Source: Micrococcales bacterium (GTDB taxonomy: Bacteria; Actinomycetota; Actinomycetes; Actinomycetales; WQXJ01). From it: DNA of 55,362 bases. The translations under genes were made by a program, and so were the position numbers. The stretch lies in NCBI GenBank assembly GCA_009784895.1, contig WQXJ01000008.1:1-55362 (forward strand), read 5' to 3'. This document shows positions 28,495 through 48,233 of the stretch, piece by piece. The notes beneath the pieces were generated by a model. It was not told where the DNA came from. It did not search any database and was given only the letters and a program-made list of their open reading frames with translations. Numbering within the stretch: position 1 is the first letter of the stretch; each line of letters begins with the position of its first letter.

Positions 28495-31449
28495 ATGTCC
28501 AACGGGCAGGGTACAGGCTCCTATTCCCCGCGGGGTCCCACAACTTGGACTGATCACAGCGTAGGGCCTTGCACCAAAGCCGGCCGCTCCAACTCGGCAG
28601 TTGTTCAGAAGACTTCACAGGCGCCAAGAATCAACAATCCCGGCCGCCTGACAATCGGCGCCCCGCACGGCGACGCCGCCGCCAGCCCCACACCAATTCT
28701 GATCCAAGATGCTGCCACAATTGTGGACGTGGCTAGAAGGATGACCGACCCAACGGTCAACGTTGGCACCGCACTGGCGACAATAGGAGTTGCAGTGATC
28801 GCGGCGGCGTCCGCAGGTACCATCGCACCCCTGGCTGGACTGGTCGCTCCTGGTGGCACCATGTTCAAAGAGGCCAGAGCGTGGGTGCGCCGAAAGGACA
28901 GCCCATTGGCCCGGGCATATGCGCAGGGTGTTACCAAGGAATGGCTAACCACCGAATTGGCCAAAGATGGCGACCTTGAAGAACAAATGGCCACCGTAGC
29001 GGAGCGGATTGCGAAACTCCTGACGCGACGGGAATCCGCCCTGGTGAAGGCCATCAACGACCCAACCTTTCCTGAGATCCACAAGACCCTGCTCGCCGTG
29101 GGTGGCCAGGAACTGCGGGACTCAATTGAGCAAAGCGGTGGCGGCCAACAAGTTGCCATGTTTGACCTCCAACTCAAGCACGTGGCACGCGTCCTCGAGA
29201 GCCTTCGCAACCCGAATGCCCAGTACTTCAAGCAGGTCCTGAACGAGCTCAAAGCCCTAGAGAAAATGATGGAGGCAACAGCGAAGGAAGGCACCGTCAA
29301 GGAAGTTGGTGCAACTAGCGAAGCAACGCACCAGGTCGCGGTGGAGATCCTTGACGCGGCCACCACTGGAGACTTTGCCGGCTACCTAGGCAAACAGGAG
29401 TCCTTTCGCCCGGCCAGAGACACTTTGCTGGATTACCTCTCCGGCAAAGTTGCGTTCGTGGGCCGCACCGAGGAGCGAAAGCGCTTGCACGGCTTTTGCG
29501 ATTCGGAGGCAAAGGTGGCCTGGGCGGCCATTACTGGACCGGGCGGCACCGGCAAGAGTCGCCTTGCCTACGAACTGTGTCGAGAGTACGAGAAGAGAGG
29601 TTGGCGGACCCTTTTTCTTCGGGATCCGTTCTTCGAGAAAACCTTCAGCAATTGGGACTATCCACAAGACTTGCTGGTGGTGGTCGACTATTTGACCGGG
29701 CGGGCGGCAAGAGTCGGCCGCTGGATCAACGAATTGAATCAGCAAGCCAGGCAGCACCGCCTAAGGTTGCTGCTGCTGGACCGAAACGAGTTCACCACAC
29801 TGGGAGGCTCGGACGGTAGGGAAAGCTTTGGTGCAGAACCAACCTGGTACCAGCAGCTGACCAGTGGGGCAGGCAGAGGCGCTGAACAGCGGCTCCACCG
29901 TGACAACGACGGACGGTGTGTAATCAGTCTGCCTCAAATGACAAACACCGACATGAAAGAAACCCTTCGATCAGTATTTGTGCCCGCTAACGCATTGGAT
30001 GACGTGATCAGTCGGCTTAACCAAATCGACCAAGGGCACAGCAGGCCCCTCTACTTGCTTTACGTTGCCAAGGCCTGGTTGGAAGACCCAGCTAAGGCCC
30101 GTGAGGTAACAGCAACACTGGCGAGCCTGCTCCAATTCATCTACCAACATGAAAAGGAGATCGTCGAGAAAGCCTGTCAACAATCTGAAGGCAGCTACCA
30201 TCCAAGCGCTGTACTGGATCTGTGGGCCTATGCAACCGTCTCTGGTGGAATCGAGGACATTCGCGGCCTGCCTTCGGGAAGCTACGCAGCCAGAACAGTC
30301 GACGACGGCGTTTCAGCTGGGAACAGGCTCGCTTTCGCGGCACTGATCCGTAGCCACGCGGGATCTCATGCTGCTGACGTTGAACCGTACACGCCAGACA
30401 TCGCTGGAGAGTTCTTGGCTCTCACCCGAGCACGTGTGGTCAAAGACGAAGACCTGACCCGACTCGTGTCCTGTGCCTGGGCAAACAGGCCCACACAGTT
30501 CCAGGGGTTTTTGGAGCGCGCTTGCCTCGACTTTGCAGAAGGGACGGCTGGGGGTGATGAGACCGGATTCGGCACGATGCTTGTTCCTGACGCAGGCTTG
30601 CTGCAACCGCCGTCTGATGCAGACCCCTGCGTTGCCAACCTCGGCTGTCACGGCTGCCTGGCACTGCTTGAGAGCACCGGACCCAGGCCAAAGGAAGCCT
30701 ACGCATTGGCCATGGCGGGTCTCGCGAATGTCGTCAGCGCGGATCATGCAGTAAAGGCTCTCCGGCCGCTGGGTGAGCTCCCTGGTGGAGTCGGGGAAGA
30801 AACACAGGCCCTCAGCATGGCGATAGCGCTGGTCAACCTGGCGGTCGATGTTGGTGAGCCAGAGCAGGCCAGGCAGATAATTGACGGTGAACTCAAACCC
30901 CTGGCCGCCGACTTCCCCGACAACCCCGACATTCACCTTCCACTAGCGCAAGCGCTATTCAACCTGACCTACAAGATCGGTGAGCCAGAGCAGGCCAGGC
31001 AGATCATCGATGATGAACTAAAGCCACTGGCCGCCAACTTCCCCGACAACCCCAACATTCACCTCCTTCTAGCGCAAGCGCTGGTCAACCTGACGTACAA
31101 GACCGGTGAGCCAGGGCAGACCAAGCAGATAATTGACATTGAACTCACACCACTGGCCGCCAACTTCCCCGACAACCCCGACATTCACGTTCGACTAGCG
31201 CGAGCGCTGTTCAACCTGGCGTACCGGACTGGTGAGCCGGAGCAAATCAGGCAGACCATTGACAATGAACTCACACCACTGGCCGCCAACTTCCCCGACA
31301 ACCCCAACATTCACCTTCCTCTAGCGCAAGCGCTGGTCAACCTGACGTACAAGACCGGTGAGCCGGAGCAGATCAGGCAAATCATCGACAATGAACTAAA
31401 GCCACTGGCCGCCAACTTCCCCGACAACCCCGAATTCAACTTCGACTAG
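28495..31449 (+). CDS. STAND-type P-loop ATPase with 42-residue repeats, 3' end truncated
   Basis: Predicted defence sensor. N-terminal ~300 residues: a hydrophobic segment (VGTALATIGVAVIAAASAG) then helical, coiled-coil-like sequence. The NTPase follows: FVGRTEERKRL, Walker A ITGPGGTGKSRLAYEL (residue ~350), Walker B-like DLLVVVDYLTGRA, then LRLLLLDRNEF, as in nSTAND proteins. After a helical middle region comes an array of 42-residue TPR-like repeats (FNLTYKIGEPEQARQIID / ELKPLAANFPDNP). The ORF stops at 31449 because of a 1-nt deletion near 31435; repeat sequence continues beyond it. The start is uncertain: the first ~30 codons resemble a noncoding flank copied at 32330-32420, so a start nearer 28723-28741 is likely. 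Probably an NLR/Avs-like system; no effector is recognised. Confidence 0.7.
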   Translation: MSNGQGTGSYSPRGPTTWTDHSVGPCTKAGRSNSAVVQKTSQAPRINNPGRLTIGAPHGDAAASPTPILIQDAATIVDVARRMTDPTVNVGTALATIGVAVIAAASAGTIAPLAGLVAPGGTMFKEARAWVRRKDSPLARAYAQGVTKEWLTTELAKDGDLEEQMATVAERIAKLLTRRESALVKAINDPTFPEIHKTLLAVGGQELRDSIEQSGGGQQVAMFDLQLKHVARVLESLRNPNAQYFKQVLNELKALEKMMEATAKEGTVKEVGATSEATHQVAVEILDAATTGDFAGYLGKQESFRPARDTLLDYLSGKVAFVGRTEERKRLHGFCDSEAKVAWAAITGPGGTGKSRLAYELCREYEKRGWRTLFLRDPFFEKTFSNWDYPQDLLVVVDYLTGRAARVGRWINELNQQARQHRLRLLLLDRNEFTTLGGSDGRESFGAEPTWYQQLTSGAGRGAEQRLHRDNDGRCVISLPQMTNTDMKETLRSVFVPANALDDVISRLNQIDQGHSRPLYLLYVAKAWLEDPAKAREVTATLASLLQFIYQHEKEIVEKACQQSEGSYHPSAVLDLWAYATVSGGIEDIRGLPSGSYAARTVDDGVSAGNRLAFAALIRSHAGSHAADVEPYTPDIAGEFLALTRARVVKDEDLTRLVSCAWANRPTQFQGFLERACLDFAEGTAGGDETGFGTMLVPDAGLLQPPSDADPCVANLGCHGCLALLESTGPRPKEAYALAMAGLANVVSADHAVKALRPLGELPGGVGEETQALSMAIALVNLAVDVGEPEQARQIIDGELKPLAADFPDNPDIHLPLAQALFNLTYKIGEPEQARQIIDDELKPLAANFPDNPNIHLLLAQALVNLTYKTGEPGQTKQIIDIELTPLAANFPDNPDIHVRLARALFNLAYRTGEPEQIRQTIDNELTPLAANFPDNPNIHLPLAQALVNLTYKTGEPEQIRQIIDNELKPLAANFPDNPEFNFD

Positions 31450-33109: not shown

Positions 33110-34696
33110 ATGCCAATGCAGTCTCTTACCCCCAAGGACAAGTGTCTGAGTGAACTCATCCGGCAACTCATGTCCAATGACATGGAATGGATTCGCCGAA
33201 GAGAGGAGTCGCTATTCCCCCTGACAGAAGACGGTGTCGGACGGTCGGTGAAGTTCGAAATTGACGTCTCCAAGCTCAGTCGAATCGCGGAAACTTGCGG
33301 ACCAATTGACCGGATTCTCGTCCCACTGGGATGGCTGAAGAAGGACATTGAGAAACGCTTCGTCGCAACCGTCGACGGTAAGCCGGCGACCCGACTCACA
33401 CGCGACGAAGTCTCAACTGCCGCTGTGTCCATACTACTCGATTGCATGCCAGAGGAGCCTCGCAGAAGCCTCTCAAAAGCCGCAATTCAGGTACTATTTG
33501 ATATCTGCTACGGATTCCCAGTCAAAAAAGACTTCCAGATAATAACTGGATCAGGAAAGGCGAACGGATCCAAAATGCCGTTGCCACCGCTTTGGGCTGG
33601 CATCAAAAGCCTCGCGCAGCCGGACAAGGACGCACTGAGGGCAGCGATGCGTGACCCGCAATTCCTGGCATTCCTAATGCGATTCACAATCAACTCCCTG
33701 CCCACAATCGAGGTTCGTCTGGCCGACATCGAGAATAGGCCGTCGTGTTTTGTGGAATACGAGCTTCTGTCAGGTCCTACCGGTCGACAACAGTATTCTG
33801 AGTTGGGCCAGGGGAAAATGCGCAACCGAGAAAAGGGATCTGGCCGTATTTGGTCACGCTTCGCCATGATGAGTGTCCCGTATGAAATCAAGATCTCTGG
33901 GTTCATGGAGGCTCAGCGTGAGCACCTTCGGATTCACCTACCAGAAGGCCTTCAGCTGGCGTCGTTGCCCCACATCGCTGTCAACCCGGAAGTAGATGAG
34001 AACAGTAGGGCCGAGATAGCAGAGTCGACCTACTTTTCGGCAACCTTGGGCACCCTCGCAATCTATCGGGCCAGACTCAAACAGAGGCACGATGACTACC
34101 GCTACCGGCTTAGCCTGTTTGCTGATCTTTCCGGTTTTGCAGTCCCGGCCTTGCTCAGCCTTGCGGCTGGGGCGATGTGCCTGTTCCTGCTTGTGCTGCT
34201 GCATTTCCTGTGGCGTTGTGGTCACGCCACATTCTTTTTTAACGCCAAGGTGTTTGACCCGGACAATTACTACAACGTGCTCGAGGTGTTGCTACTTGGC
34301 TCGGCGCTGGTGACAGGCTGGTCAGTCCACGCTGATCCGAAGGGTGTAAGGAGAATTCTTCTAAGCCCTCCGCGACGGATGGTGGTGTTTGCGATGATCG
34401 TAAACGTCAGTGTTGGCCTATTCTCGGCGGTGTTTGGCCACGAAATTCCCCCCAGTCCTCTGGTTTTGGCATGGCTAGTCGCTTTGGCTGTAAATGCGGC
34501 AGTGATCGTGTCCCTGTTTATTTCGATCGTCATCCATAGGAGGGCGACAAAAGCCATACTCCCGCATCTTGGCGAGACGCTCAGGCCACCTGTGCTGGAT
34601 ACGGATACCAGATTCCCGTTCTTTTCCAAGTACACAGGTAGAACCGAGGCTGTGCTGGGTACTGAGGAGCCGCCGGAGGACCTGCAAGGTGGATGA
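33110..34696 (+). CDS. Large membrane protein of unknown function in the defence island
   Basis: 528-aa protein with no family I recognise. Residues 1-340 are soluble, with SLSKAAIQVLFDICYGFPV and an RIHLPEGLQLASLPHIAVNP segment; residues ~345-485 hold four membrane helices (FAVPALLSLAAGAMCLFLLV, VLEVLLLGSALVTGW, MVVFAMIVNVSVGLF, LAWLVALAVNAAVIVSLFI); the tail is cytoplasmic. The base composition is visibly less GC-rich than the neighbours, consistent with transfer. Start ATG 33110 has AAGG 5 nt upstream. It converges on brxL and lies between BREX and the STAND gene. A soluble sensor plus membrane effector layout is possible, but this is inference. Confidence 0.65.
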   Translation: MPMQSLTPKDKCLSELIRQLMSNDMEWIRRREESLFPLTEDGVGRSVKFEIDVSKLSRIAETCGPIDRILVPLGWLKKDIEKRFVATVDGKPATRLTRDEVSTAAVSILLDCMPEEPRRSLSKAAIQVLFDICYGFPVKKDFQIITGSGKANGSKMPLPPLWAGIKSLAQPDKDALRAAMRDPQFLAFLMRFTINSLPTIEVRLADIENRPSCFVEYELLSGPTGRQQYSELGQGKMRNREKGSGRIWSRFAMMSVPYEIKISGFMEAQREHLRIHLPEGLQLASLPHIAVNPEVDENSRAEIAESTYFSATLGTLAIYRARLKQRHDDYRYRLSLFADLSGFAVPALLSLAAGAMCLFLLVLLHFLWRCGHATFFFNAKVFDPDNYYNVLEVLLLGSALVTGWSVHADPKGVRRILLSPPRRMVVFAMIVNVSVGLFSAVFGHEIPPSPLVLAWLVALAVNAAVIVSLFISIVIHRRATKAILPHLGETLRPPVLDTDTRFPFFSKYTGRTEAVLGTEEPPEDLQGG

Positions 34697-34958: not shown

Positions 34959-37154
34959 TCACGACCGATTGCGAGGCTCGAAGACATAGGTGATTTCGAA
35001 TTCTTTGACTGCGCGGTAGCGCTGTTGGCGCAGGCGCAGGTCTAGCCAGTTGGAACCGAAAGGTTGGAACACATCCAGGCCGCGGCCCAGGATTATTAGC
35101 CAGCCGGTGTCCGCCTGGATCGAGCGGTCGTGGATGGTGTCGCTAAAGGAGTAGTCGAAGCTGATTCCGGCCACGGCCACGTTGGTGCGCACGTCTTCCA
35201 GGAGGCCAAGTTGCTTCTTGGCCTCTTCTGGGGTTTCGTCAACCTTCGTGGTGAGGTGCACCTTCACCTCAACGCTGGGGTCTGTCACCTTTGTGATGGT
35301 CTCGATCAGCTCCACCAGATTCCGCATCTGGTGGGAGGCGCGGATGTAGGGATCGATCACCTCGATCCGGGTCGCGGCCCGGAGGTAGGGGCCGAAGAAG
35401 CGGTCGAAGCTGAAGCCGCGGCGGCCTTCGGCGAACTTGTGGTGGCCAGGCTTCAGCACGGTCTGTGCCGGCGTTGAAGGCTCAGCAGGTCGCTTGGCAT
35501 CAGGCGCCCCAGCTGCCGCCGCATCGGCTGCTGACCCCGCGGGCGAGGGCGCGCCAGAGTCAGCCGGGGACCCGGCATCGGCCTCCCCAGTCCCAGGCTC
35601 CGGCTCGGCCGCCACCCGGTGGTAGAGCTCGGGGTACTCGTCTTCCTCTAAGGTCGCAACCGGGGACCACTCACCACCGCTCTCAGCAAAGCCGAACCGG
35701 ACAGGGGTCATGGTGGTGTCAATCCGCAGCAACTGGTCTTTGACCCGTTTGCGCCCCTCGACCGCGGTCCGCAACAGCGCCTCCATCTCGCCAGCAGAAG
35801 CCTCGCCGGTGGGATGCACCAGCTTCATCAGCCCAGAGAAGGTCTTGTGGATGCCGTCCCGGTCGCGGGTGGAGATATCACCCGAGAGCTCGAAGTGGTC
35901 CTGAAACTTGTCGGAGAAATCGGTGTCCCGCATATCGCGCAGCACCTCGGCCAGGTAGTCCACCACGAAGCCGTGCCCAGAAGAGAACATCTCGCCGCGA
36001 ATCTGCTCGAACTCCCAGCCCGGGATGTAGAAGTGGATCCGGTCAAGGAAGGCCGGGTCGTGGTACTGCTCAGGCAGCTCGTCAAACAGGTCGGAGTTCT
36101 TCAACATGTAAGGCACCGTGTGGGCGGTGTTGCCAATGAAGACCATGGATGCCTCTGCCCCCAGCGTCTCAATCCCGCGGGAGAAGGACTTGTTAGCCAT
36201 GTAGTTCTTCATGATGTCAACCAGCGCGCGGTCGGCTCGCTTCTTCTTGCCGGCAAACTCATCGAAGGCCACACAGTCCCAGTAACCAACCAGGCCAATC
36301 CGGCCATTGGCATTGTTGACGAACAGCTTGGCCACCGTCACCTCGCCACCGGAAATCAACATGCCGTGCGGCGAAAACTCCGAGTAGATGTGGGACTTGC
36401 CGGTCCCCTTGGGCCCCAGCTCAACCAAATTGTAGTTGCGTTCAACAAACGGAATCAGCCGGACCAAATGCAACAGCTTGGCCCGCCGGCCAAACAAGGC
36501 TGGGTCAAAGCCGATCGATTGGAGCAGCAGGTCGATCCATTCCTCAGTGGTGAACTGGGCCCGGGCCTGCTGGTAGGTGGAAATGTCGAGGTTCGACAGT
36601 TGGATTGGCTTAAGGCTGTGCAACCGCCAGGGCACATCCTTGGAATCGCCAGAATGCGCGTAGACAATCTCGCTGATGCACCACACCCCGCCAGTAAGCA
36701 ACTTGGGATGCTGGCGCACGGTTTGGGCGGCCACAAGCACCCGGCTAATGCCAAGGTTAGAGAATTCGGCCTCGTAGACATCCAGCTTCTCATTCAGCGC
36801 CACCGACACCTTGTCGATTACCCGGTAGCGCCCCTGCTCCTTGATCCGGGACTGGATCAGGCGGCTCTCACCACGGTGGACATAGTTGTCGCGCAAAATG
36901 CTCCGCACCGCGTCAATGCCACTTTTGATGGTGGCCTCATCATCAGTGGCCGCGTACTGCGCCAGCAGGTACTCCAGCACGTAAGTGGGGACTATTGCGT
37001 TGCCTTTGACCGCCTTGACCAGATCCTTGCGGACAACTACACCTGGGAAGGCCGCCGTGATCTTGCGGTCCAGTTGGCTGGGCTGAGGCGAGCCGGAGGG
37101 CGGGCCGGTTTGACCTGGCTGCGCGCCAATTGCCGGATCGTTTGGTTCTGTCAT
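34959..37154 (-). CDS. brxL: BREX protein BrxL with PLD-like instead of Lon C-terminus
   Basis: 731-aa AAA+ protein, last gene of the BREX operon. The N-terminal core is typical: LDRKITAAFPGVVVRKDLV, Walker A GPKGTGKSHIYSEFS (residue ~250), Walker B VAFDEFAG (~296), then DLFDELPEQYHDPAFLDRIH and SGLMKLVHP. After an Ala/Pro/Ser/Gly linker (~515-562), the C-terminus reads FDRFFGPYLRAATRIEVIDPY, HDRSIQADTGWLIILGRGLD and RLRQQRYRAVKEFEITYVF. This looks like a MIT_C/phospholipase-D-like domain and shows none of the Lon protease Ser/Lys blocks of E. coli BrxL. ATG 37154 is chosen (AGGACGG upstream, 7 nt after pglZ). BrxL cores form DNA-binding rings; the role of this tail is unknown. Confidence 0.87.
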   Translation of the reverse strand: MTEPNDPAIGAQPGQTGPPSGSPQPSQLDRKITAAFPGVVVRKDLVKAVKGNAIVPTYVLEYLLAQYAATDDEATIKSGIDAVRSILRDNYVHRGESRLIQSRIKEQGRYRVIDKVSVALNEKLDVYEAEFSNLGISRVLVAAQTVRQHPKLLTGGVWCISEIVYAHSGDSKDVPWRLHSLKPIQLSNLDISTYQQARAQFTTEEWIDLLLQSIGFDPALFGRRAKLLHLVRLIPFVERNYNLVELGPKGTGKSHIYSEFSPHGMLISGGEVTVAKLFVNNANGRIGLVGYWDCVAFDEFAGKKKRADRALVDIMKNYMANKSFSRGIETLGAEASMVFIGNTAHTVPYMLKNSDLFDELPEQYHDPAFLDRIHFYIPGWEFEQIRGEMFSSGHGFVVDYLAEVLRDMRDTDFSDKFQDHFELSGDISTRDRDGIHKTFSGLMKLVHPTGEASAGEMEALLRTAVEGRKRVKDQLLRIDTTMTPVRFGFAESGGEWSPVATLEEDEYPELYHRVAAEPEPGTGEADAGSPADSGAPSPAGSAADAAAAGAPDAKRPAEPSTPAQTVLKPGHHKFAEGRRGFSFDRFFGPYLRAATRIEVIDPYIRASHQMRNLVELIETITKVTDPSVEVKVHLTTKVDETPEEAKKQLGLLEDVRTNVAVAGISFDYSFSDTIHDRSIQADTGWLIILGRGLDVFQPFGSNWLDLRLRQQRYRAVKEFEITYVFEPRNRS

Positions 37155-37161
37155 GGCCGTC

Positions 37162-39663
37162 CTAGAAGTCGAAATCGCTGGTGAAGGTGCGGTTGAGAGT
37201 GAAACGAAGCGTCGGAGGGTAACGGACGCGTTGTGATGTGCCAACTGTCTCGAATAGCCTCAGCTCGATGGTCTGGCCGTTGAACGGGTCGGCTTGCCGG
37301 CTGAGCACCAAGGTGATCGGGTGGAATCGGTCGCGTTTCTCGGATGAAGTCTGTGAGCAGACCACACAAACTTCGTTGGAGACCATGGTGTCCTCGACGT
37401 AGAGAGCTGCGAAAAGCTCACGCGGCCGGATCTTCTCGGTGACAGGTTCTTCTTGGTACAGGTGGACCGTGATCTGACCCGTGGTGATCCGGTCTGTGTC
37501 GGCCATAGGACGCACGGCCACCCGGTCAGTGTCCTTCGCCCGCTTCTTGTTGATGGCCAGGACCGGCACCACCACTTCCTGTAGCGAGGCGCCACCGTGG
37601 ACGTACCTGACGCCCGATCCGCCGGCTTTCAACCGGTGAATCGATCTGGGCACTTGGGCTTCCACCCGGCCGGTCAGGCCAAGTTGGGCCGAGGTAAAGG
37701 TGGTAAAGGCGGGCTGCCGCAGCAAGCCCAGCCCCAGCGCGAAACGCGGATTGATGACCGGCACCTGGTCACCATGAGGCTTCTCTGAGAGGTAGTCAGA
37801 TTCATTCAAACCGCTGTCTTGATAGAGAAAGCCGTGGTCGGCGGTGACCAGGATGTTGCTGGCATTGGCGCTGGCCAGAGCCTTGATAATCCTGATCAAG
37901 TCGGTGATGGTTCGCTCCACCGCATCAAAGACGCCGCCTTCGGTGGCGCGTTCTTCGCCGGTCCGGTCAATCAAGTCGTGGTAGAGGTACAGCACCTGGC
38001 TGGCTTTCAGCGTCTCACGCCGCTGGCTAGGGCTCTGCTCCAAGAAGGCCTCGCACCTAAGCGCCGCCCCGCCACATTGGTCCAGGAGCTTACCCCGATT
38101 GGCCGTGCCGTTGGAAGGTTTGCCGTCAACCGCCACATGGGCGCTTTTGTCTTCCGCAAACGCCAAGGTTTCGTGTGGCAGCAGGGCCGCCATACCCAGC
38201 TGCGTGTAGGAAGGCAAAGTGCTCAGCACGGAGTCCAAGTTGCCCTCGAATTTGTCCTCACGGCGAATGCGGCGGCATAGTTCCTCAGCCACCTCGTAGC
38301 GCAGCCCGTCAGAAATCAGCACCACAATCCGGTTGCCCTTAGACAGGTAGGGGCCTTGGACGTGCTTGGCAAAGAACTGCCGTTGCGGCGTGACGCCCTC
38401 GACGCGCCACTGCTCCAAGGTGTCGACCTGGCGCTGCCACTCATCGCCCAAGGGCCTGAGGAATCTGGTCGTGTAGAAACCCTCGACCTTTGCACGCAAG
38501 GCGGCCAAAGTGGGGTCGCTATCAATCTGGTCACAGTGCCAGGTGAAATGGCGGTAGGCCTGGTCAATGGCAAAAAAGGCCTCAGTGTATTGGTGGAAAC
38601 CTTCGGTCGGGCTGGCCATCGATAGGTCAGCCAGGTCAATTCGCGTCAGGCAGGTTGAGGCCGCCGTCAGGGCCAGGTAGTGGTGTTCGAAAACCGAGCC
38701 CCAGGTACCGGCCAGGCGGCTGCGTGCCATGTCCTTCACGTCCTGATCGAGCAAGGTGCGCTGCTCCACTCCAGCGGCCAGCCGAGTGGTTATCTCTTGG
38801 TCGGCTTCACGGAAGACAAACCGCTCCATCAGCTCCGGCAGGTCAAGGTCAGCCAGCTGTTCGCTGATCCGCAGGCTGACCGCGGACATCTCGGCCAAGG
38901 TCAAATAGGCCTGCGTGAAACGCAGGTCATTGCTCCAAGTACTGAAATCGCGCTGGATGTTGCGGTACTGGTTCGGCACGTCTGAGGCAAAGCCCTGCCA
39001 GGCCAGACCGAAGACCCACAGCATGAAGTCTTCGACCGATGGCGCATCGCTGGAGTAGCCGTAGATTTCTTTGGTACCGGCCCAGTGGTAGCCGTCCAGC
39101 CCAAGCTTGGTGATCTCGTTAATCCAGGTTGACCGGCCCGCCGCGTGTTCTTGCAGCAGATGGCGCCAGATCATGTCGAGCGAATGATCCTCGCAGCCGA
39201 TGACGGTGGCCACCATTTTGGCGGTAGCGACCTTGGCACTATCTTCAGCCGAGACTCGCTGACCCAGCTTGGTGTTGCGCTTGTCGGAGTTGAAAAACGC
39301 CGGGTAGTGTTCGACCAACTCCGCCGGCACCCCAAGATCTTGGGAGAGCAGGGCTTCCCTGTCAGCTGTGAACAAACCGTAGGTCAATTCCAGGTCCAGC
39401 AGCCAGTTGTCCAGGTTGGTCGCAGGTGGTGGACCGGCTCGATAGATCAGGAACTTGGCGGCGGGTTCTTCCGAAAGCACCTGGACCTTTATGGCGAATT
39501 CGTCTGAGTCGACCCGCAGGACCGTCACGCCAGGCAGGTCAAACTGATCGAGTTGGCTTTTGAATTCGCCCTCTGGATCAGACCAAATCACTAGGCGGGA
39601 GGTTGGGTCCGCCCCGGCGAACCGCTGTTGGAGCTGGGCCTGGATCGAAGCCAGTGCGATCAT
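37162..39663 (-). CDS. pglZ: BREX protein PglZ
   Basis: 833-aa alkaline-phosphatase-superfamily protein, a required core part of BREX and Pgl phage defence. The N-terminal IWSDPEGEFKSQLDQFDLPG is typical. The metal-site motifs are VVLISDGLRYEVAEEL (residue ~450) and ILVTADHGFLYQDSG (~609), and GGASLQEVVVPVLAI precedes the C-terminal domain. ATG 39663 overlaps the pglX stop by 1 nt (TGATG), so translation is coupled. Family members act as metal-dependent nucleases or phosphodiesterases in vitro; the in vivo substrate is unsettled. Confidence 0.94.
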   Translation of the reverse strand: MIALASIQAQLQQRFAGADPTSRLVIWSDPEGEFKSQLDQFDLPGVTVLRVDSDEFAIKVQVLSEEPAAKFLIYRAGPPPATNLDNWLLDLELTYGLFTADREALLSQDLGVPAELVEHYPAFFNSDKRNTKLGQRVSAEDSAKVATAKMVATVIGCEDHSLDMIWRHLLQEHAAGRSTWINEITKLGLDGYHWAGTKEIYGYSSDAPSVEDFMLWVFGLAWQGFASDVPNQYRNIQRDFSTWSNDLRFTQAYLTLAEMSAVSLRISEQLADLDLPELMERFVFREADQEITTRLAAGVEQRTLLDQDVKDMARSRLAGTWGSVFEHHYLALTAASTCLTRIDLADLSMASPTEGFHQYTEAFFAIDQAYRHFTWHCDQIDSDPTLAALRAKVEGFYTTRFLRPLGDEWQRQVDTLEQWRVEGVTPQRQFFAKHVQGPYLSKGNRIVVLISDGLRYEVAEELCRRIRREDKFEGNLDSVLSTLPSYTQLGMAALLPHETLAFAEDKSAHVAVDGKPSNGTANRGKLLDQCGGAALRCEAFLEQSPSQRRETLKASQVLYLYHDLIDRTGEERATEGGVFDAVERTITDLIRIIKALASANASNILVTADHGFLYQDSGLNESDYLSEKPHGDQVPVINPRFALGLGLLRQPAFTTFTSAQLGLTGRVEAQVPRSIHRLKAGGSGVRYVHGGASLQEVVVPVLAINKKRAKDTDRVAVRPMADTDRITTGQITVHLYQEEPVTEKIRPRELFAALYVEDTMVSNEVCVVCSQTSSEKRDRFHPITLVLSRQADPFNGQTIELRLFETVGTSQRVRYPPTLRFTLNRTFTSDFDF

Positions 39664-42600
39664 CAGACACCATCCTCCGGCCTGAGTGGATGCTTGGGCC
39701 AGGTCCAGCCCTCGACGTCGCGGCGATTCTTCTCGATGGCGGGGATGGCAGCCACGGCCCGGCCCAGGCGCAGGTAGTTCACCAGAACACCGTCGTCAAG
39801 ATCGAGGCGGAGGTTGCGGGAGACCAACGGGTAGAGCACATCGCGTTCGTAGTCTTGGCATTCGGTTAGCATCAAGGCCAGGTCATTGGCCTTTTTCTGG
39901 TCGGCGGCCTGGCCGGACGATTTCAGGGCGTTAGCCTCGGCTTGCAGCTTGGTCTGGAACTCCCGCAGGTAGTCGTTCAGTAGGTGGCTGAGCGTTTCCG
40001 GGGTGTAGCGGTGCAGGTAAATCAAGGCGTTGAAGGCGCCCTTGCCGTCGCGGCGGGTAGAAAAGAGCCAATAGATGGGCCGGCCTTTGTAGCGTTTGAT
40101 GTGGTCGGCGTAAAAGTCTCTCAGGAAATACTGCCGCATTTGTTTGCCCAAGGTCTGGTCGATGTAGGCCAAGTTGTCGTCAAAGTGGTCTTGACCGAAA
40201 GCAACCCGCAGGAACTGGCGGCAACGGGCCACCACACCACCTTCAAACCAGGTCTCACCAGTGAAAGGAATGACGTTGTGAGCATTGGGTCTGAATCGGG
40301 GCTCTGGCACCTTGGCCAGGTAGTCGCCGAGTGACTCACCCTGGCTGGCCAGGATTAGGCCGGGTTGGTCCAACGAGTAGCGGCCAAAGATGCAGCCCAC
40401 GGTGTAGCTCAGCAGCTCCTTGACCGATTCTTCGGCAAACAGGGTTTTGCGCTCGTCCTCATTCTTGCCCGGCCAGCGGAAGGCAGTGTTGCGGGTCAGC
40501 GAGACCCGTTCCAACGGCACTTCACAAGGAACCTCGTCTGCCAGGTCGTAGAGCTCGGCGACGGCCCGGTTGTTGGCCTCTTCCAGAGCCTGCTGCTGCG
40601 CAGAACGCTCGTCCCACACGGAACGATGCTCCTCTATGGCCTGCTCCATCGGGTGGTCGTTGCGCTGGGTGAGCAACGGATTGGCGCCGAAGTCCCACGA
40701 AGTCTCAAAGTCGTCCCAGTCACGCTTGGCCTCTGCCACCAGCGCCTCAATTGCCGCACCTCCTTCAAAGGATCTACATGGCACTGGCATCTTGGCAACG
40801 TATCCAGTGGGGAGGTGCAGGGTCGGAGCAATCGCCTGGAGAAGAGCTGCCGCCACAGCCGAGTTTAGAAGCGCCAAGAGCTTTGGATCGTCCTGGCCCG
40901 AAGAAAACAGCGACATGCCCACTACGTCGTGGATAAACCCTGGCGGAAAGCGACGGAACGCGGGGGCGCCGGACGTGACATCGGACCATGCCACCGAGGG
41001 CATGAAATAGGTGTCCGGATTCCGAAGCACCGAACGCGGGCGAAATCCCGTGAGTTCAGCTCCGTCGTTTTCCCAATTGACCACTTCTTGCTGGTTCCCA
41101 TGCCAGCGACGGAATTCGCCTCCCTTGTTGTACGGGAACCAGCGCCGGCCGGTAGCCCTAGCTGCGGGCCGGTTGCGGCAGCCAATCGCCGTGTTGTCTT
41201 TGTCAATCTCCCACCACTGGCGCACAAAGCGCATTACGTCCCCTGTGGACAATCCTTGACACGGCTTGGCCACCTGGGCAATGGGCTGCCCCCGAGTGAA
41301 GGCTCGGCGCATCTTCTCCGAAAGCCAGTAGACGATGGGCGTGCCCGGGATGTGCCTGAAAGACTTCTGGTCCACCGCAAAACTGTTGTAGGCCCTGTCA
41401 AGGAAAAGCGCTTCGATCTTGTCAACTGACCTGACTTCAACGTGTTGCTCGAACAGCCTGCGGTAGACACCCTTTCGCCCGCTGGATCGCGCCTTTTGAA
41501 CGATGAAGGCGACGGACCCGAAGTCGGATCCAAAGACCCCGCGCCCAAGGTGCGCCATCAAACAAAGGAAGTCTTCGCTGACCAGCCATTCCCGCAGGGT
41601 CTCAAATGATTTCAAAAACATCCACGAAGGCAGGTTGATGATCGCCCAAGTGCCCTGGTTGTGTGCCATTTCGTCGGCCCGGAGCATGAAAGCAGTCATC
41701 AGATCAGACCTGCCGCTCGGGTATTCGTCTCTCAGCCAGGTGGCGAGTGGGGTCGACATGTTGCGGGAGCCCATGTATGGCGGGTTGGTCACCACAACGG
41801 AGTACTGCCTGGCCAGGAATTCGGCCTGGTTCACCACCTGTTCCAGGCGTCCATCCAGGTCAACTTGATCAAAGGTCGGCGACTCGTGTTGGTCCCACCG
41901 CTCAGCCAGCCTGGCCTGGCTGTCCCCGCTGACGCCGTCAAACGGGGACAGGCCCCGCTGAGCCAACTGAGACTTGGCCAAGGCCAACCGGTCCGGATTG
42001 ACCCGCAGCAGCGAGCCGAAGGTGTTGGCATGTTCGAAGGCGTTCCAGAATGCGGCCTGAGCGCCCGCATCCGCCTCGGGGTCGATCAGGCCATCGAGCT
42101 CGTCCGGTTTGACCTTGACCGGCTCGAGCACACAAACGCTGGGCCTGACGCCGGTGGTAAAGAAACGACGCTGCTTGGCCCTGGCCTTCATGCAGAGGGC
42201 AAAGGCCGCCAGCGCCCCGGCCCGCTCGTCAATCTCCAGACCAAAGAGGTTGTGGGTCAGGATCAACCCGGGGATCTTTGACGGGGCGTAGCCCTGCTCG
42301 GCGTAGATGGCATAGAGCAGGTCAAAGGCGTAGGTCAGCATGTGTCCCGAGCCGCAAGCCGGGTCGCATACAGTCAGTTCCTGTGGTGAGTCGATGTGGA
42401 GAAACTCGCCTAGGTCACCTTCCGGCGCTATGAGGTGCTCCATCTGCTGGGCCAGCTGGGATTCGGGGTGGTTCAGCAGCCACAACCGGCCCACTGAGTT
42501 CTGTACCAAGTAGCGGACAATCCAATCCGGTGTGAACAGCTGTGTGGCCGGCGGGATCTCATTGGGACCGGCTTTGAGGCCTTTCTTGAAACCGGCCATG

Positions 42601-43262
42601 ACCTGGTTTTTGCGCTCTGCGATGTAGTACTGGTAAAGCCAGCCAATAACCTCGACATCCTGGCAGTCTTCTGGTGCCAGGCACTGCACAGCCTGATCCA
42701 AGACTGAGCCTTCTACCAGCAGGTTGGCCGGCATTAGCAGGCTGGTGTAGTTGCCCTCCGGCTGGAACATAAGGGGCATGGACTTGGACCAGTAGGCGCA
42801 GTGGGCAGCCAACACCAGGCCGTAGGCCTCCCCTTGGGGATCACTCGAGGGCACAGAGCCATTCAGCAGCCCGGTGATACGCTGGCGGGTCTCAGCCTTG
42901 CAGTAGACCTCGGGGTCGAAGTCACCGCGCTTGACCACCGCCAGTGATGCTGGCTGGCCGGCAGGAAAACCCTCCGGCGGCGAAACCACCGGGGTGTTGG
43001 TGTAGCGGTTAGCGTCCATGAAACGCAGAGCCACGATCCGGTTGAACCAGACATAGGCCTGTTGTTCGGTGACATACTGGCGACCGGCTTTCCCACCGCC
43101 ATGTGCCGCAATCACTTTCTCCAGGGCTCTTACCGCCTCAGACGCTTCGACCCTGGCGGTGGACGAGGCCGCCAAGACAATGCCCACCCGAGCCGCAACC
43201 TGCTGGACTAGCTCAGTGCGAGACGATGTGGCAAAGGCCTCAAGCTTGCGGCGGTCAATCAC
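39663..43262 (-). CDS. pglX: BREX adenine-specific DNA methyltransferase PglX
   Basis: 1199-aa methyltransferase that marks host DNA at a non-palindromic site and sets BREX specificity. SAM motif VCDPACGSGHMLTYAF (residue ~302) and catalytic motif VVTNPPYMGSRNMS (~492) are present; a KRYKGRPIYWLFSTRRDGKG block marks the C-terminal part, and the region between residues ~600 and ~900 should hold target recognition. GTG 43262 overlaps the brxC stop by 4 nt, with AGAGGA upstream. The length is normal for type 1 PglX; no frameshift or simple-sequence switch is seen. Confidence 0.95.
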   Translation of the reverse strand: MIDRRKLEAFATSSRTELVQQVAARVGIVLAASSTARVEASEAVRALEKVIAAHGGGKAGRQYVTEQQAYVWFNRIVALRFMDANRYTNTPVVSPPEGFPAGQPASLAVVKRGDFDPEVYCKAETRQRITGLLNGSVPSSDPQGEAYGLVLAAHCAYWSKSMPLMFQPEGNYTSLLMPANLLVEGSVLDQAVQCLAPEDCQDVEVIGWLYQYYIAERKNQVMAGFKKGLKAGPNEIPPATQLFTPDWIVRYLVQNSVGRLWLLNHPESQLAQQMEHLIAPEGDLGEFLHIDSPQELTVCDPACGSGHMLTYAFDLLYAIYAEQGYAPSKIPGLILTHNLFGLEIDERAGALAAFALCMKARAKQRRFFTTGVRPSVCVLEPVKVKPDELDGLIDPEADAGAQAAFWNAFEHANTFGSLLRVNPDRLALAKSQLAQRGLSPFDGVSGDSQARLAERWDQHESPTFDQVDLDGRLEQVVNQAEFLARQYSVVVTNPPYMGSRNMSTPLATWLRDEYPSGRSDLMTAFMLRADEMAHNQGTWAIINLPSWMFLKSFETLREWLVSEDFLCLMAHLGRGVFGSDFGSVAFIVQKARSSGRKGVYRRLFEQHVEVRSVDKIEALFLDRAYNSFAVDQKSFRHIPGTPIVYWLSEKMRRAFTRGQPIAQVAKPCQGLSTGDVMRFVRQWWEIDKDNTAIGCRNRPAARATGRRWFPYNKGGEFRRWHGNQQEVVNWENDGAELTGFRPRSVLRNPDTYFMPSVAWSDVTSGAPAFRRFPPGFIHDVVGMSLFSSGQDDPKLLALLNSAVAAALLQAIAPTLHLPTGYVAKMPVPCRSFEGGAAIEALVAEAKRDWDDFETSWDFGANPLLTQRNDHPMEQAIEEHRSVWDERSAQQQALEEANNRAVAELYDLADEVPCEVPLERVSLTRNTAFRWPGKNEDERKTLFAEESVKELLSYTVGCIFGRYSLDQPGLILASQGESLGDYLAKVPEPRFRPNAHNVIPFTGETWFEGGVVARCRQFLRVAFGQDHFDDNLAYIDQTLGKQMRQYFLRDFYADHIKRYKGRPIYWLFSTRRDGKGAFNALIYLHRYTPETLSHLLNDYLREFQTKLQAEANALKSSGQAADQKKANDLALMLTECQDYERDVLYPLVSRNLRLDLDDGVLVNYLRLGRAVAAIPAIEKNRRDVEGWTWPKHPLRPEDGV

Positions 43263-46200
43263 AAAGAAATCCTCTTGCCCTGGTCGATCGCCTGTTGCAA
43301 GGTGACACGCAATTCCTCAACGTAAGCGTCGACATCGGCCACGGTCTGCAACACCTTAGGCGCGGGAGCGGGCAAGGACCTGATCGACACAATGGGCGCA
43401 GCCCGGGGCGTTGGGCCTGCCTCTTTGGGCCCGGCCGGCTCCAGCAGTTCAAGTATTTCCAGGAAACCTTGTGCGGCAAACTCCTCTCGGAGCTGCTTGA
43501 TCACAGGGATGCTGGTAGCCGCAGCCACCGCCGCAAGAACCCTCTCCTGGATCTGCTGGACTTGCCCCAGCACCTCAGGCGAAGCCTGCTCGAGCACATC
43601 GCCTTGGACCGTGACATCGATCCGGGCACTGATCTGTTCAAGCGCGGCCTCGCGTTCGGCGTTGACGATGGCGCCGGCGGCCACTTTGAAAGCAGCCGCC
43701 GCGTCTTTCAGCCGGTTGGCCCCGGTGCGGATCAAGTTCGGGTCGGCTAGTAAAGCCTCGACACGCTCGGCCTGACCGTCGGTTAGGTAGCGCCGGTTGT
43801 CCTGGTTGGCGGCCAGGAGGTGGCTGGCTTCATCGAAGACGTCCTTTTGCGACGAATTCAGGAACGAGCTGATTGGGTCGATGAAGTCCTGCTTGGCCTC
43901 AAGCAACTGGTCGATGTAATCGGTGAACTGGTCCAAGTACCAGCTGGTGGGTCGGTTGACCACCTGGGTCAACCGGGAGATGGGCTGATCAAGGCCGTTA
44001 ATGAACGGGTAGCTGCCGTGAGCGGACCGGAGAGCCTCAAGGCGGCGCAGCTCGTCCTCCAGGCGCAGCTTCACCTGGGCGGCCAAGTCTCTGGGGTCAA
44101 CCGTGGCGATATTCTCCGCAGAGAACTCTTGAACAAATGTGCGGACTTGGTTGACCTTGGCCTGGTCGAACTGGCGCTGCTCGGTGACCTCGACATTGGG
44201 ATGATTGGCGGTGTTGCGCAGCACCTCGGCAACTTGCGTGCGGGCCAACTCCGAGCCGTCCAGGTGTAGGGTCACCTGGTCGGTGGCAAACAGCTTGGCA
44301 ATGACGCAAAGAATGGCCCCGGGCGGCCAGCCGTAGGGGCGGTCCTCAAACTGTTCCATGATCTTCTTTACCGTGACCATGGCGCCCTGGGCGCGCTGCT
44401 GGTTGATGTAGGACGCCAGCTCGGCGGCTGGCGGCTGGAGCTTGTCAAAGTCGCCGGCCAGCAACACAGGGTCGTTGGCCAGCACCTTGGCGATATCCGG
44501 TTCGGAATAGGCCACTCCGCCCAGGTCAGGCAGCCGGGTGTAGAAAGTGGCCACCAGCTGGCCAACGCCCTCGTCTAGGCGGGCCTCTGGTTCCGTGGCC
44601 GTGACGGCAACCTGGGCGCCGTTGATGACCATGGTCGAGTTGGCCAAGGCGCCCCGGATTCGTTTGACCAGTTCGTCACGACGCTGTCGGTTGAGTCGAG
44701 TTCTTGATTCGAGGATGTAGCGCCGGGTTTCGGTCAACCCAGAATGCATGGTCAGCTTGACGTACTTGTCAGTCTGGAGGTGGAGCTTCAGATCTCCGTA
44801 GAGCCTGGGGTCATGCGCCAGGACCACCCTTAGCTCAGGCCGGCCCATCGACTGGGCCTTGATGATGTCTTGGTCCTGCCCCAGCGCCGGGGAAATGTAG
44901 TGCACGGACAAAGTGTGTTGCCGGCCGTATGCAGAGTCATCAAGCTGGAGACCATATTTGAAGACCCGGCCGGTGGCGGCATGGGTCCATGAGTTGGTCT
45001 TGGCGACATCCTCGACAATCAGCTTGGCCAGCAGGCCAGAAATCTCGCCGGAATCCACGCCGGTGCCCTTGATCTCTTGCTCAATGTCCTGTTCTTCGTT
45101 GGTCAAATACTCATAGCTCGAACCACTTCGCTGAACGTAGGTTTCCCGCTCCAAAGTGTCCAGGGCCAAGCGGACCTCTTCACCCAGAACAGTCAGATCT
45201 TGGCCAAAGTGGTCAATCAGTAGGACCGCGAGGTTACGTGGCGTGGCCTTGAAACCCTCGACGTATTTGACCAAGAACAGGGCCATGAGCAGGCGGATGG
45301 CGGTCTCGCTGCCGGCCGGAAGGAGGTTTTGGGCGGTGGTGAGGTTGCGGGTGGCCGTGGACTTGACCGACTTGGCGATACCAGCAAACATGGCGTCGAG
45401 CGAAACCAGGGCGCCAACTGGCCGGGTGGTCATCTGCTTGCCGACCTCCTGAACCACCCCTAGCATTGACCGCTCACCAACGGAAGAATGCCGTCCTTCA
45501 AAGACGTTGTGGAGTGACAGCCCAATTAGGGCATCCTGGAAGAGCGCCAGCTGGTAAGGGACAAAGGGATAAAGGTCGGTGAAATCGTCCTGGTCTGAGT
45601 AGTTGCGATAGGACTTGGCCCCGTCAACGAAGTCGAAAAGGGTGCGGAAATTGGGCCGCTGTTGGTGGTACAACCCGGCAAAGCTGCCGGCCGCCGCGTC
45701 GGTCTTATCCAACAAACGCCGCTTGATGACCTCCTCAAGGTCGCGGCTAGTTAGTCTCATTGGAGCGACGAAACGAGCCTGGATTTTGGAGAAGTCATTG
45801 GCCTGTGTCTTGGTCCGGTCGCCAATCACCCCCTCAATGTCTTCCTGACTGGTGACAAAGACCCAGGCCCGGCCGTGGCAGCGCGTGGCCAGCGACTCAA
45901 CAATCGTTTGGAGGTTCAGCATCAGCTTGGTGTTGGTGCCAATGAACTGACCCACTTCATCGGCCATGAACAACAGACGGTGGTCGGGTGACTGGCCGTC
46001 CAACCAGTCCTTGACCTCATCCGCGAACTCTTCAATCGAGAGGGTGTACTTGTCCTCGTAGCGACCTAGGATGCTGTCACTTGGTGGCTCGCCGGTGACC
46101 ATGGACCAGGCCTGAGTGACGGCGTGCTCTTGGAGAATGCCCTCTTCGCGACCCTGAGCCCAAGGAACACCGGCGATCTGCTCGAAGGCTTGGCGGAACT

Positions 46201-46747
46201 GGTCCAGCAAACCCCGCCGGTCCAAGTCTCGTTCAAACCGGGCGACCGAGGGGTCATTGCCGTAGTATCCCCTGACCTCGTTGAACACCTTGAGGAAGAC
46301 CTGAAGCAAGGCATCTGTCTGGCTCTTGTCGATGAGCGGTGCTTTTTGGTCGATGTTGAACAACAAGGTGGTGGCTGGGATCGAGGCCGCCTTGCCCAGC
46401 GCGGCCGTCAGCATTGAATCGCCAATGGCCTTGCCGGCGAAGGTTACCACCACGTCTTGGCGCGTGATGGACTGGCCCGCCACGTCCCCCAGCAGGTGCG
46501 CCAGCATTTTCAACAGGTGGGACTTGCCTGAGCCAAAGAAGCCCGAGATCCATACCCCGTTGCCACCGCTGCCGGAACTGTTGTAGCTGTCGAGCAAATC
46601 AAGCAGCGCCGAGGCGGTTTCCCCAGTCAGGACGTATTCGTCAATTTCTGTGGCCAGGTTGGCGGCATCGTCCGCCTTGATGACTCCCTCGATGGGCCGG
46701 TTGATGTCCTTCGCGAAGATGTCGGCAATCAGGGGGGCGGGGTTCAT
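43259..46747 (-). CDS. brxC: BREX ATPase BrxC
   Basis: 1162-aa P-loop ATPase of the BrxC/PglY group (DUF499/DUF6079-like), a core BREX motor. It opens APLIADIFAKDINRPIEGVI, has Walker A ISGFFGSGKSHLLKML (residues ~67-82) and the acidic strand LLFMADEVGQFIG, followed by the helical region FVTSQEDIEGVIG. ATG 46747 overlaps the brxB stop (ATGA), with AGGAG upstream. In type 1 BREX it sits between brxB and pglX, as here. Confidence 0.95.
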   Translation of the reverse strand: MNPAPLIADIFAKDINRPIEGVIKADDAANLATEIDEYVLTGETASALLDLLDSYNSSGSGGNGVWISGFFGSGKSHLLKMLAHLLGDVAGQSITRQDVVVTFAGKAIGDSMLTAALGKAASIPATTLLFNIDQKAPLIDKSQTDALLQVFLKVFNEVRGYYGNDPSVARFERDLDRRGLLDQFRQAFEQIAGVPWAQGREEGILQEHAVTQAWSMVTGEPPSDSILGRYEDKYTLSIEEFADEVKDWLDGQSPDHRLLFMADEVGQFIGTNTKLMLNLQTIVESLATRCHGRAWVFVTSQEDIEGVIGDRTKTQANDFSKIQARFVAPMRLTSRDLEEVIKRRLLDKTDAAAGSFAGLYHQQRPNFRTLFDFVDGAKSYRNYSDQDDFTDLYPFVPYQLALFQDALIGLSLHNVFEGRHSSVGERSMLGVVQEVGKQMTTRPVGALVSLDAMFAGIAKSVKSTATRNLTTAQNLLPAGSETAIRLLMALFLVKYVEGFKATPRNLAVLLIDHFGQDLTVLGEEVRLALDTLERETYVQRSGSSYEYLTNEEQDIEQEIKGTGVDSGEISGLLAKLIVEDVAKTNSWTHAATGRVFKYGLQLDDSAYGRQHTLSVHYISPALGQDQDIIKAQSMGRPELRVVLAHDPRLYGDLKLHLQTDKYVKLTMHSGLTETRRYILESRTRLNRQRRDELVKRIRGALANSTMVINGAQVAVTATEPEARLDEGVGQLVATFYTRLPDLGGVAYSEPDIAKVLANDPVLLAGDFDKLQPPAAELASYINQQRAQGAMVTVKKIMEQFEDRPYGWPPGAILCVIAKLFATDQVTLHLDGSELARTQVAEVLRNTANHPNVEVTEQRQFDQAKVNQVRTFVQEFSAENIATVDPRDLAAQVKLRLEDELRRLEALRSAHGSYPFINGLDQPISRLTQVVNRPTSWYLDQFTDYIDQLLEAKQDFIDPISSFLNSSQKDVFDEASHLLAANQDNRRYLTDGQAERVEALLADPNLIRTGANRLKDAAAAFKVAAGAIVNAEREAALEQISARIDVTVQGDVLEQASPEVLGQVQQIQERVLAAVAAATSIPVIKQLREEFAAQGFLEILELLEPAGPKEAGPTPRAAPIVSIRSLPAPAPKVLQTVADVDAYVEELRVTLQQAIDQGKRISL

Positions 46748-47361
46748 GACGGCTCCTGTTCCAGGATGTTCTTAGCTCGGTAGTACTGATCATCGGTGAG
46801 CTGATCAAACAGCACCAAAGTCGAACCAAGGGCGGCAGATTGGCGATACTCGCCGGGAAAGAGCATCAGCATGGGCCGCCCGGAAACGGCCGCGTGCAGA
46901 TTGTTCAACAAACTGTGTGAGCGAATGAAAGGGAAGACTTGGCCAACCCCGACTACCAACAGAACGTCGTAGCTGGGCGTTTGGGCCAACCTCTCTTTGA
47001 TGGCAGGTACCAAGTGTGTCTCTGGGTCCAGGAGCTTTTGGAGGTCGCGGCGGAAGGCCTCCCTTGACCGCTTGGGCTCAACCTCAATTAGCCGGCGCAG
47101 CACCTTGCGCTGCTCCAACAACTCGACCGTCAGTGCAAATAGATCGATTTGTGGGACGTCCAGGCCATGTTTGGTTTCGAGCTGGTTGCGGATCCTCTTG
47201 GCGGCCGCCTGGGCTGTTAGCTCCTGGTTGGCAGGGTAGGCCCATATGTAAAATGGCACCTCGTTGCCGAGTCCCTGCATCTTGAGGAACCGCTCGGAGC
47301 CGAGCACCTTCAGGATGTTCTGCTCCTCGCGGCCAAGGTCACGGGCTGTTTCGCCTGTCAA
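46744..47361 (-). CDS. brxB: BREX protein BrxB (DUF1788)
   Basis: 205-aa DUF1788 protein, small core component of type 1 BREX with unknown biochemical role. Typical pieces are EVPFYIWAYPANQELTA, TYDVLLVVGVGQVFPFIRSH as read at its centre (SYDVLLVVGVGQVFPFIR) and MLMLFPGEY near the C-terminus. The start is TTG 47361, unusual but well supported: AGGAGG lies 5 nt upstream and the TTGA overlap links it to the brxA stop. Confidence 0.93.
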   Translation of the reverse strand: MTGETARDLGREEQNILKVLGSERFLKMQGLGNEVPFYIWAYPANQELTAQAAAKRIRNQLETKHGLDVPQIDLFALTVELLEQRKVLRRLIEVEPKRSREAFRRDLQKLLDPETHLVPAIKERLAQTPSYDVLLVVGVGQVFPFIRSHSLLNNLHAAVSGRPMLMLFPGEYRQSAALGSTLVLFDQLTDDQYYRAKNILEQEPS

Positions 47362-47957
47362 AGTGCGCCTCCTGCTGGGAAGTAGCGGATGTCGCTGGGC
47401 GCACGCTGGTCCAGCAGTGCGGCAATCTGAGGTGACAGAAGCGGCTCGACGATACTGCCCGTCTCTGTGAGGAAACCGGCCTGGCGCAAAGCCAGGAACA
47501 GGTTCCGGCGGAGCTTATCTCTGGTTGAGTCTTTGAGCTGTTCGAGCTGGGCGTGCCACAAAGCCTGGCTGATGCAGAACCGGTCGAAGTCCTCATATGC
47601 CAACGACAAGTCACCAAGTAGATACTTGTCCCGGAGCACGGACTGTGCGAATTGGCCCACCAGCTGATAGCGACGGCAAACGGCCACCCACATTATGTGG
47701 TTGCGGTCAGTGCCCGGCGCCTGGGCTAGACAGCGCAACTCGTCACGGGACAACTCGCTTAGCCGCTGCACAACCTCACGACTGACGCGAAGAGCGGTGG
47801 TCCGGAGACGAGTGCCTAGCAGGTTGCGTTCCATCAACTCGGTCCGCGCCAATTCCCAGTCGCCCGATTCGAGGAACAACGGCGCGGCCACTGCGGCTTC
47901 TTGGGAGAGAAGACCGCCAACGGTAAATGAGAGGCGGTAGGGATCACTGGTTGCCAT
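47358..47957 (-). CDS. brxA: BREX protein BrxA (DUF1819)
   Basis: 199-aa DUF1819 protein, first gene of the operon. It starts SDPYRLSFTVGGLLSQEAA and includes RNHIMWVAVCRRYQLVGQFA and a helical C-terminus; the NusB-like fold is known from BrxA structures and binds DNA. ATG 47957 has GGAGG 5 nt upstream; the frame is open to 48038 but that extension has no ribosome site. A promoter should lie in 47958-48230, which also serves the divergent 48234 gene; a TAGGCT box near 47998 is a candidate. Confidence 0.93.
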   Translation of the reverse strand: MATSDPYRLSFTVGGLLSQEAAVAAPLFLESGDWELARTELMERNLLGTRLRTTALRVSREVVQRLSELSRDELRCLAQAPGTDRNHIMWVAVCRRYQLVGQFAQSVLRDKYLLGDLSLAYEDFDRFCISQALWHAQLEQLKDSTRDKLRRNLFLALRQAGFLTETGSIVEPLLSPQIAALLDQRAPSDIRYFPAGGAL

Positions 47958-48233
47958 CACCGCCTCCTTCCCCAGCGTCTGCCGAATAGAGCAGCCTACA
48001 AGCCGGCACCGACATGCCCGGCCCGCCACCAGCCTCACTCATCCGGCTGACCTGGCGTCAAGCGTAGTAGGCTCCCTCGCCACTTGGGTTACCGCGCATC
48101 AACCGTTGTGGCTCATTGGCCGCCGGCGCAGGCGGAACCGCCCGCTATGATCAACCAACGGCACCCAAACACCGGCAAGCCTTGCACAAAGACGGCGGCG
48201 ACGAATCCACGCCGCCTCTGAGGAGACAGCCCC

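What the first reader, a model, noticed from the sequence alone, without database searches (positions are those of the whole stretch)
34959..35470. BrxL with its Lon protease domain replaced by a PLD-like (MIT_C-like) tail
The AAA+ core is standard, but after an Ala/Pro linker the C-terminus carries IEVIDPY, HDRSIQADTG and IILGRGLD, resembling a phospholipase-D-like fold, with no Lon Ser/Lys region. This would change the effector end of BREX, perhaps to nucleic-acid or membrane binding or cleavage.
Basis: partly seen in the sequence, partly recalled or inferred. Interest (0 to 1): 0.72.

Follow-up and report, generated by a model that had tools for sequence, protein, structure and literature searches.

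The report
BREX BrxL with a MITD1-like tail
The last gene of a normal bacterial anti-phage (BREX) operon ends in a phospholipase-D-like domain related to human MITD1 instead of the usual Lon-like domain; this is real but already described in about a third of such genes, and what the domain does is untested.

Summary
brxL (37154-34959, minus strand, 731 aa) is the last gene of a complete type-1 BREX operon. Its core is ordinary (BrxL_N plus BrxL_ATPase), and residues 580-724 are a Pfam MIT_C domain (E 8e-39). AlphaFold plus fold search puts the domain on human MITD1 (Z 20), with phospholipase-D-like nucleases next (SauUSI Z 9.7; NucT, Nuc, BfiI Z 7-8). There is no Lon domain.

It is not novel. 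A 2026 survey (PMC12839542) counts 1030 of 2913 type-1 BREX taxa whose BrxL carries such a tail, calls it an HKD-endoDNase with an HRD motif, and cites a 2025 report. PADLOC already has a BrxL profile covering core and tail. 'Lon protease replaced' overstates the change: the usual BrxL Lon-like domain already lacks the Ser-Lys dyad.

Added here: His675, Arg691 and Asp694 are invariant in 28 unselected tails; Arg677 is 27/28; the canonical Asp (682) is often Asn. The domain also occurs outside BREX, on a dynamin GTPase and an IF2_N protein. The BrxL slot also holds Schlafen AlbA_2 and protein-kinase tails, which that paper's main text does not list for BrxL. Best reading: a tethered PLD-type phosphodiesterase, probably a DNase. 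Activity is untested.

The parts
34959..37154 (-). brxL, 731 aa (ORF extends to TTG 37244; ATG 37154 preferred)
36660..37052 (-). BrxL_N (PF20442)
35715..36626 (-). BrxL_ATPase AAA+ domain (PF13337)
35439..35609 (-). Ala/Pro/Glu-rich linker, about residues 516-572
   Evidence: translation; boundaries by eye
34983..35417 (-). MIT_C (PF16565) PLD-like domain, residues 580-724
   Evidence: model and fold search
35109..35132 (-). H-x-R-x4-D motif, His675/Arg677/Asp682
35073..35087 (-). GRGLD motif, residues 690-694; R, G, L, D invariant in 28 unselected tails
37162..39663 (-). pglZ (BREX-1 type A)
39663..43262 (-). pglX, BREX-1 adenine methyltransferase
43259..46747 (-). brxC
46744..47361 (-). brxB
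47358..48038 (-). brxA

Best explanation
A type-1 BREX BrxL whose inactive Lon-like C-terminal domain is replaced by a MIT_C domain of the phospholipase-D fold. Shown: the architecture, predicted fold, operon context, conserved residues and wide occurrence. Inferred: as in the solved BrxL, the core forms an ATP-dependent ring on DNA; the tethered tails pair up as single-motif PLD domains do and sit near the ring equator, where they act as an HRD-type phosphodiesterase, most likely a DNase on unmodified phage DNA alongside PglZ.
For: MIT_C far above cut-off. The full-length PADLOC BrxL model covers core and tail. The model (pLDDT 82) matches MITD1 at Z 20, then SauUSI Z 9.7, with NucT, Nuc, NgoAVII and BfiI at Z 7-8. 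A canonical HxKx4D protein aligns with its H and K on His675 and Arg677. His675 is 28/28 and Arg677 27/28, with Tyr603, Gln609, Asn612, Arg691, Asp694 and Arg714 all 28/28: the pattern of an active or ligand site. Tails sit on BrxL after pglZ in several phyla, in a complete operon in Arthrobacter. The published interpretation agrees. Ring, DNA binding and equatorial C-terminal domain: PMC10164562.
Against: Lys is replaced by Arg. The motif Asp is Asp in only 20 of 28. The nearest structure, MITD1, is a membrane-binding cytokinesis protein (title of Hadders 2012), and I found no report that it has an enzyme activity. The domain is also fused to a dynamin GTPase, which fits a membrane role. No activity data exist in anything I read.
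Confidence: 0.6

Rival explanations
1. The tail is a catalytically dead PLD fold that binds membrane lipid or phosphate ligands, as MITD1 does, and tethers BrxL-bound phage DNA at the membrane or dimerises the rings.
For: Closest fold is MITD1, Z 20; Lys to Arg and variable Asp; a dynamin-MIT_C fusion in Thiodictyon; the Lon-like domain it replaces has a dimerising role.
Against: An invariant His and a dense set of invariant polar residues across phyla are more than a lipid-binding surface should need; the rest of BREX acts on DNA.
Confidence: 0.25
2. The tail is a phosphodiesterase acting on something other than phage DNA (RNA, nucleotide or phospholipid), that is an abortive or signalling effector.
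For: Distinct motif set (DPYxR, HxR, GRGLD) unlike canonical HKD DNases; the same slot holds Schlafen AlbA_2 (putative RNase) or protein-kinase tails in other BREX loci.
Against: No direct evidence of any substrate.
Confidence: 0.15

Closest known systems
BrxL with C-terminal HKD-endoDNase (HRD motif), Rakesh & Krishnan 2026, PMC12839542, citing Li et al. 2025
   Same: Type-1 BREX BrxL with the Lon-like domain replaced by a PLD-fold domain with H-R-D; 1030 of 2913 taxa
   Different: That paper does not mention MITD1 or MIT_C. I equate the two by architecture, fold and motif; its supplementary alignments could not be opened, so the identity is inferred.
Human MITD1 C-terminal domain (PDB 4a5z, 2ymb)
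   Same: Same Pfam family and fold; phmmer E 6e-20; shares DPYIR, HDR and GRGLD
   Different: MITD1 has an ESCRT-III-binding MIT domain instead of an AAA+ core, and Asn at the motif Asp position
Acinetobacter BrxL with Lon-like tail (PDB 8emc)
   Same: N-terminal and AAA+ domains over residues 55-510 of the ORF (E 7e-132)
   Different: C-terminal domain is Lon-like and without protease residues, not PLD-like
PLD-type restriction nucleases SauUSI, BfiI, NgoAVII, and the nuclease Nuc
   Same: Fold, Z 7 to 10
   Different: About 10% identity; Lys in the motif (family knowledge); no GRGLD known to me

Membership tests
BrxL | BrxL_N and BrxL_ATPase domains | tested here: met
BrxL | Encoded in a type-1 BREX operon next to pglZ | tested here: met
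   brxA-brxB-brxC-pglX-pglZ-brxL
BrxL, Lon-like subtype (TIGR02653) | Lon-like C-terminal domain | tested here: not met
   TIGR02653 stops at position 455 of 675 and 572 bits is under the 628 cut-off; no Lon_C
MIT_C (PF16565) | Profile score over the curated cut-off and MITD1 fold | tested here: met
   133 bits against 25; Z 20 to 4a5z
PLD/HKD phosphodiesterases | PLD fold | tested here: met
   predicted model only
PLD/HKD phosphodiesterases | HxKx4D motif | tested here: not met
   HxRx4D here; Arg in 27/28, Asp in 20/28
PLD/HKD phosphodiesterases | Catalytic activity | not testable with these tools
   needs enzyme assay

The most novel reading that the evidence does not exclude
BrxL is a plug-in platform: one ring ATPase that swaps Lon-like, MIT_C/PLD, Schlafen AlbA_2 and protein-kinase effectors at the same C-terminal slot. 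The MIT_C effector is a distinct phosphodiesterase class (HxR plus GRGLD) shared with bacterial dynamins and with human MITD1, so that a eukaryotic cytokinesis protein carries a bacterial-immunity-type active site.
Probability: 0.3. Interest if true: 0.65.

Novelty: already known. Interest (0 to 1): 0.28.

Why it matters
How BREX stops phage is still unsettled, and BrxL tails point to exchangeable effectors. If the MIT_C tail cleaves DNA, about a third of type-1 BREX systems carry a second nuclease besides PglZ. The link to MITD1, absent from the survey that describes the tail, would make a testable prediction about a human protein.

Tried and rejected
Phage records: no tail match. Viral contigs with the tail: none confirmed; with the BrxL core, 12 of 14 loci carry MIT_C, but the query was of that type so this is biased. 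Weak MIT_C matches in Bacillota and some Pseudomonadota (open frames about 350-450 aa) look like ABC-transporter ATPases by their sequence, not relatives. L145 is a truncated tail fused in frame to an unrelated protein, L144 is cut by a contig end, L008 is a broken brxL. Papers on the MITD1 structure and on Menshen are not held. Residues near GRGLD are biased in the 80-locus set because the search pattern contained them; the 28 unselected tails were used instead.

Full report
What is there. The minus-strand ORF 34959-37244 encodes BrxL. The likely start is ATG 37154, shortly past the pglZ stop, which gives 731 residues. It closes a complete type-1 BREX operon, brxA-brxB-brxC-pglX-pglZ-brxL, at 48038-34959. 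The N-terminal and AAA+ domains are ordinary (BrxL_N 1.7e-46, BrxL_ATPase 4.4e-127; solved BrxL 8emc E 7e-132). After an Ala/Pro/Glu-rich linker come residues 580-724, a MIT_C domain (E 8.4e-39). By sequence alone it finds human MITD1 in the PDB at E 6e-20. There is no Lon_C match, and TIGR02653 stops where the Lon-like part would begin.

Fold. AlphaFold2 on 41 related tails gave a model with mean pLDDT 82. Foldseek ranks only MITD1 chains at E below 1e-14, followed by phospholipases D at E about 1e-3. VIA-align 2 gives MITD1 Z 20.3 over 153 residues, the SauUSI restriction enzyme Z 9.7, then PLDs, NucT, Nuc, NgoAVII and BfiI at Z 7-8.5.

Is it known? Yes. PMC12839542 (Rakesh and Krishnan 2026) reports that 1030 of 2913 type-1 BREX taxa with BrxL have the Lon-like domain replaced by an HKD-endoDNase with an HRD motif, and credits an earlier 2025 paper. 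PADLOC's PDLC02508 BrxL model covers core and tail together. I infer that their HKD domain and this MIT_C domain are the same from architecture, fold and motif; their supplementary alignments were not open to me. They do not mention MITD1.

My own survey. In 396 genomes of the window's phylum 23 brxL genes were found besides one small fragment; 22 have a readable tail: 10 Lon-like, 6 AlbA_2, 5 MIT_C (the window's own included) and 1 kinase; one gene is cut by a contig end. The Lon-like label was given by Pfam for three of the ten and by eye for the rest. In 155 genomes of another phylum 8 were found, 3 with MIT_C (the seed genome included) and 5 Lon-like. Leaving out both seeds, 6 of 28 carry MIT_C. 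In plasmids, 321 records match the BrxL core and 25 match the tail, two of the latter not being BrxL; the core set is dominated by Acinetobacter and Escherichia. A tree of 72 BrxL cores needs three changes for the MIT_C label, all forced by well-supported branches (0 of 200 bootstrap trees with one), and two for AlbA_2. Three changes may be one gain and two losses, and some rows have long branches.

Residues. In 28 tails not chosen by motif, His675, Tyr603, Gln609, Asn612, Arg691, Gly692, Leu693, Asp694 and Arg714 are invariant. Arg677 is 27/28. Asp682, the Asp of a canonical HxKx4D motif, is D 20, N 7, S 1. Human MITD1 has HDREIRFN...GRGLD, that is the same constellation with Asn. A canonical PLD protein (L006, with MHQKFAIID) aligns its His and Lys on His675 and Arg677. 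The published 'HRD' therefore rests on an Asp that is not strictly kept, or on Asp694.

The slot is wider than Lon or PLD. Six BrxLs in the phylum sample carry a Schlafen AlbA_2 domain (E 5e-10 to 5e-19) and one a protein kinase (E 1e-33) in place of the Lon-like domain. In the three loci whose surroundings could be read, brxC, pglX and pglZ precede it. The main text of PMC12839542 names only Lon-like and HKD tails for BrxL, and a text search found no other paper that holds both BrxL and Schlafen.

MIT_C outside BREX. A 947-residue protein of a Thiodictyon plasmid has a dynamin GTPase domain and a C-terminal MIT_C; a 349-residue protein of a Paenarthrobacter plasmid has IF2_N and MIT_C. Neither lies beside BREX genes in the stretch read.

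Mechanism. Shown by others: BrxL rings assemble on DNA with ATP, and the C-terminal domains meet at the equator. Inferred: MIT_C tails pair there and act as a PLD-type phosphodiesterase, probably on DNA. Against this: Arg for Lys, variable Asp, and a membrane-binding nearest relative. I give the catalytic DNase reading 0.6.

Noticed in passing
L146, L148, L150, L161, L163, L166 (brxL ORFs): BrxL with a C-terminal Schlafen AlbA_2 domain in place of the Lon-like domain; in L161/L171 and L166/L174 the gene follows brxC, pglX and pglZ.
   Followed up: partly
L165:1012-3480 (L175:9345-11795): BrxL with a C-terminal Ser/Thr protein-kinase domain in a BREX locus with brxC, pglX, pglZ type B.
   Followed up: partly
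L009:5574-8417: Dynamin GTPase fused to a C-terminal MIT_C domain on a Thiodictyon plasmid, outside BREX.
   Followed up: partly
L007:9386-10435: IF2_N domain fused to MIT_C on a Paenarthrobacter plasmid, outside BREX.
   Followed up: partly
window 28495-31449: 984-aa protein with a STAND-like NTPase region and TPR repeats near the BREX operon, a possible further defence gene; no PADLOC match.
   Followed up: no
window 33110-34696: 528-aa ORF with no Pfam match, convergent with brxL.
   Followed up: no
window 24620-53950: The BREX region lies between genes for HemN/LepA and for DNA polymerase III delta/ComEC, which suggests an island inserted among core genes.
   Followed up: no
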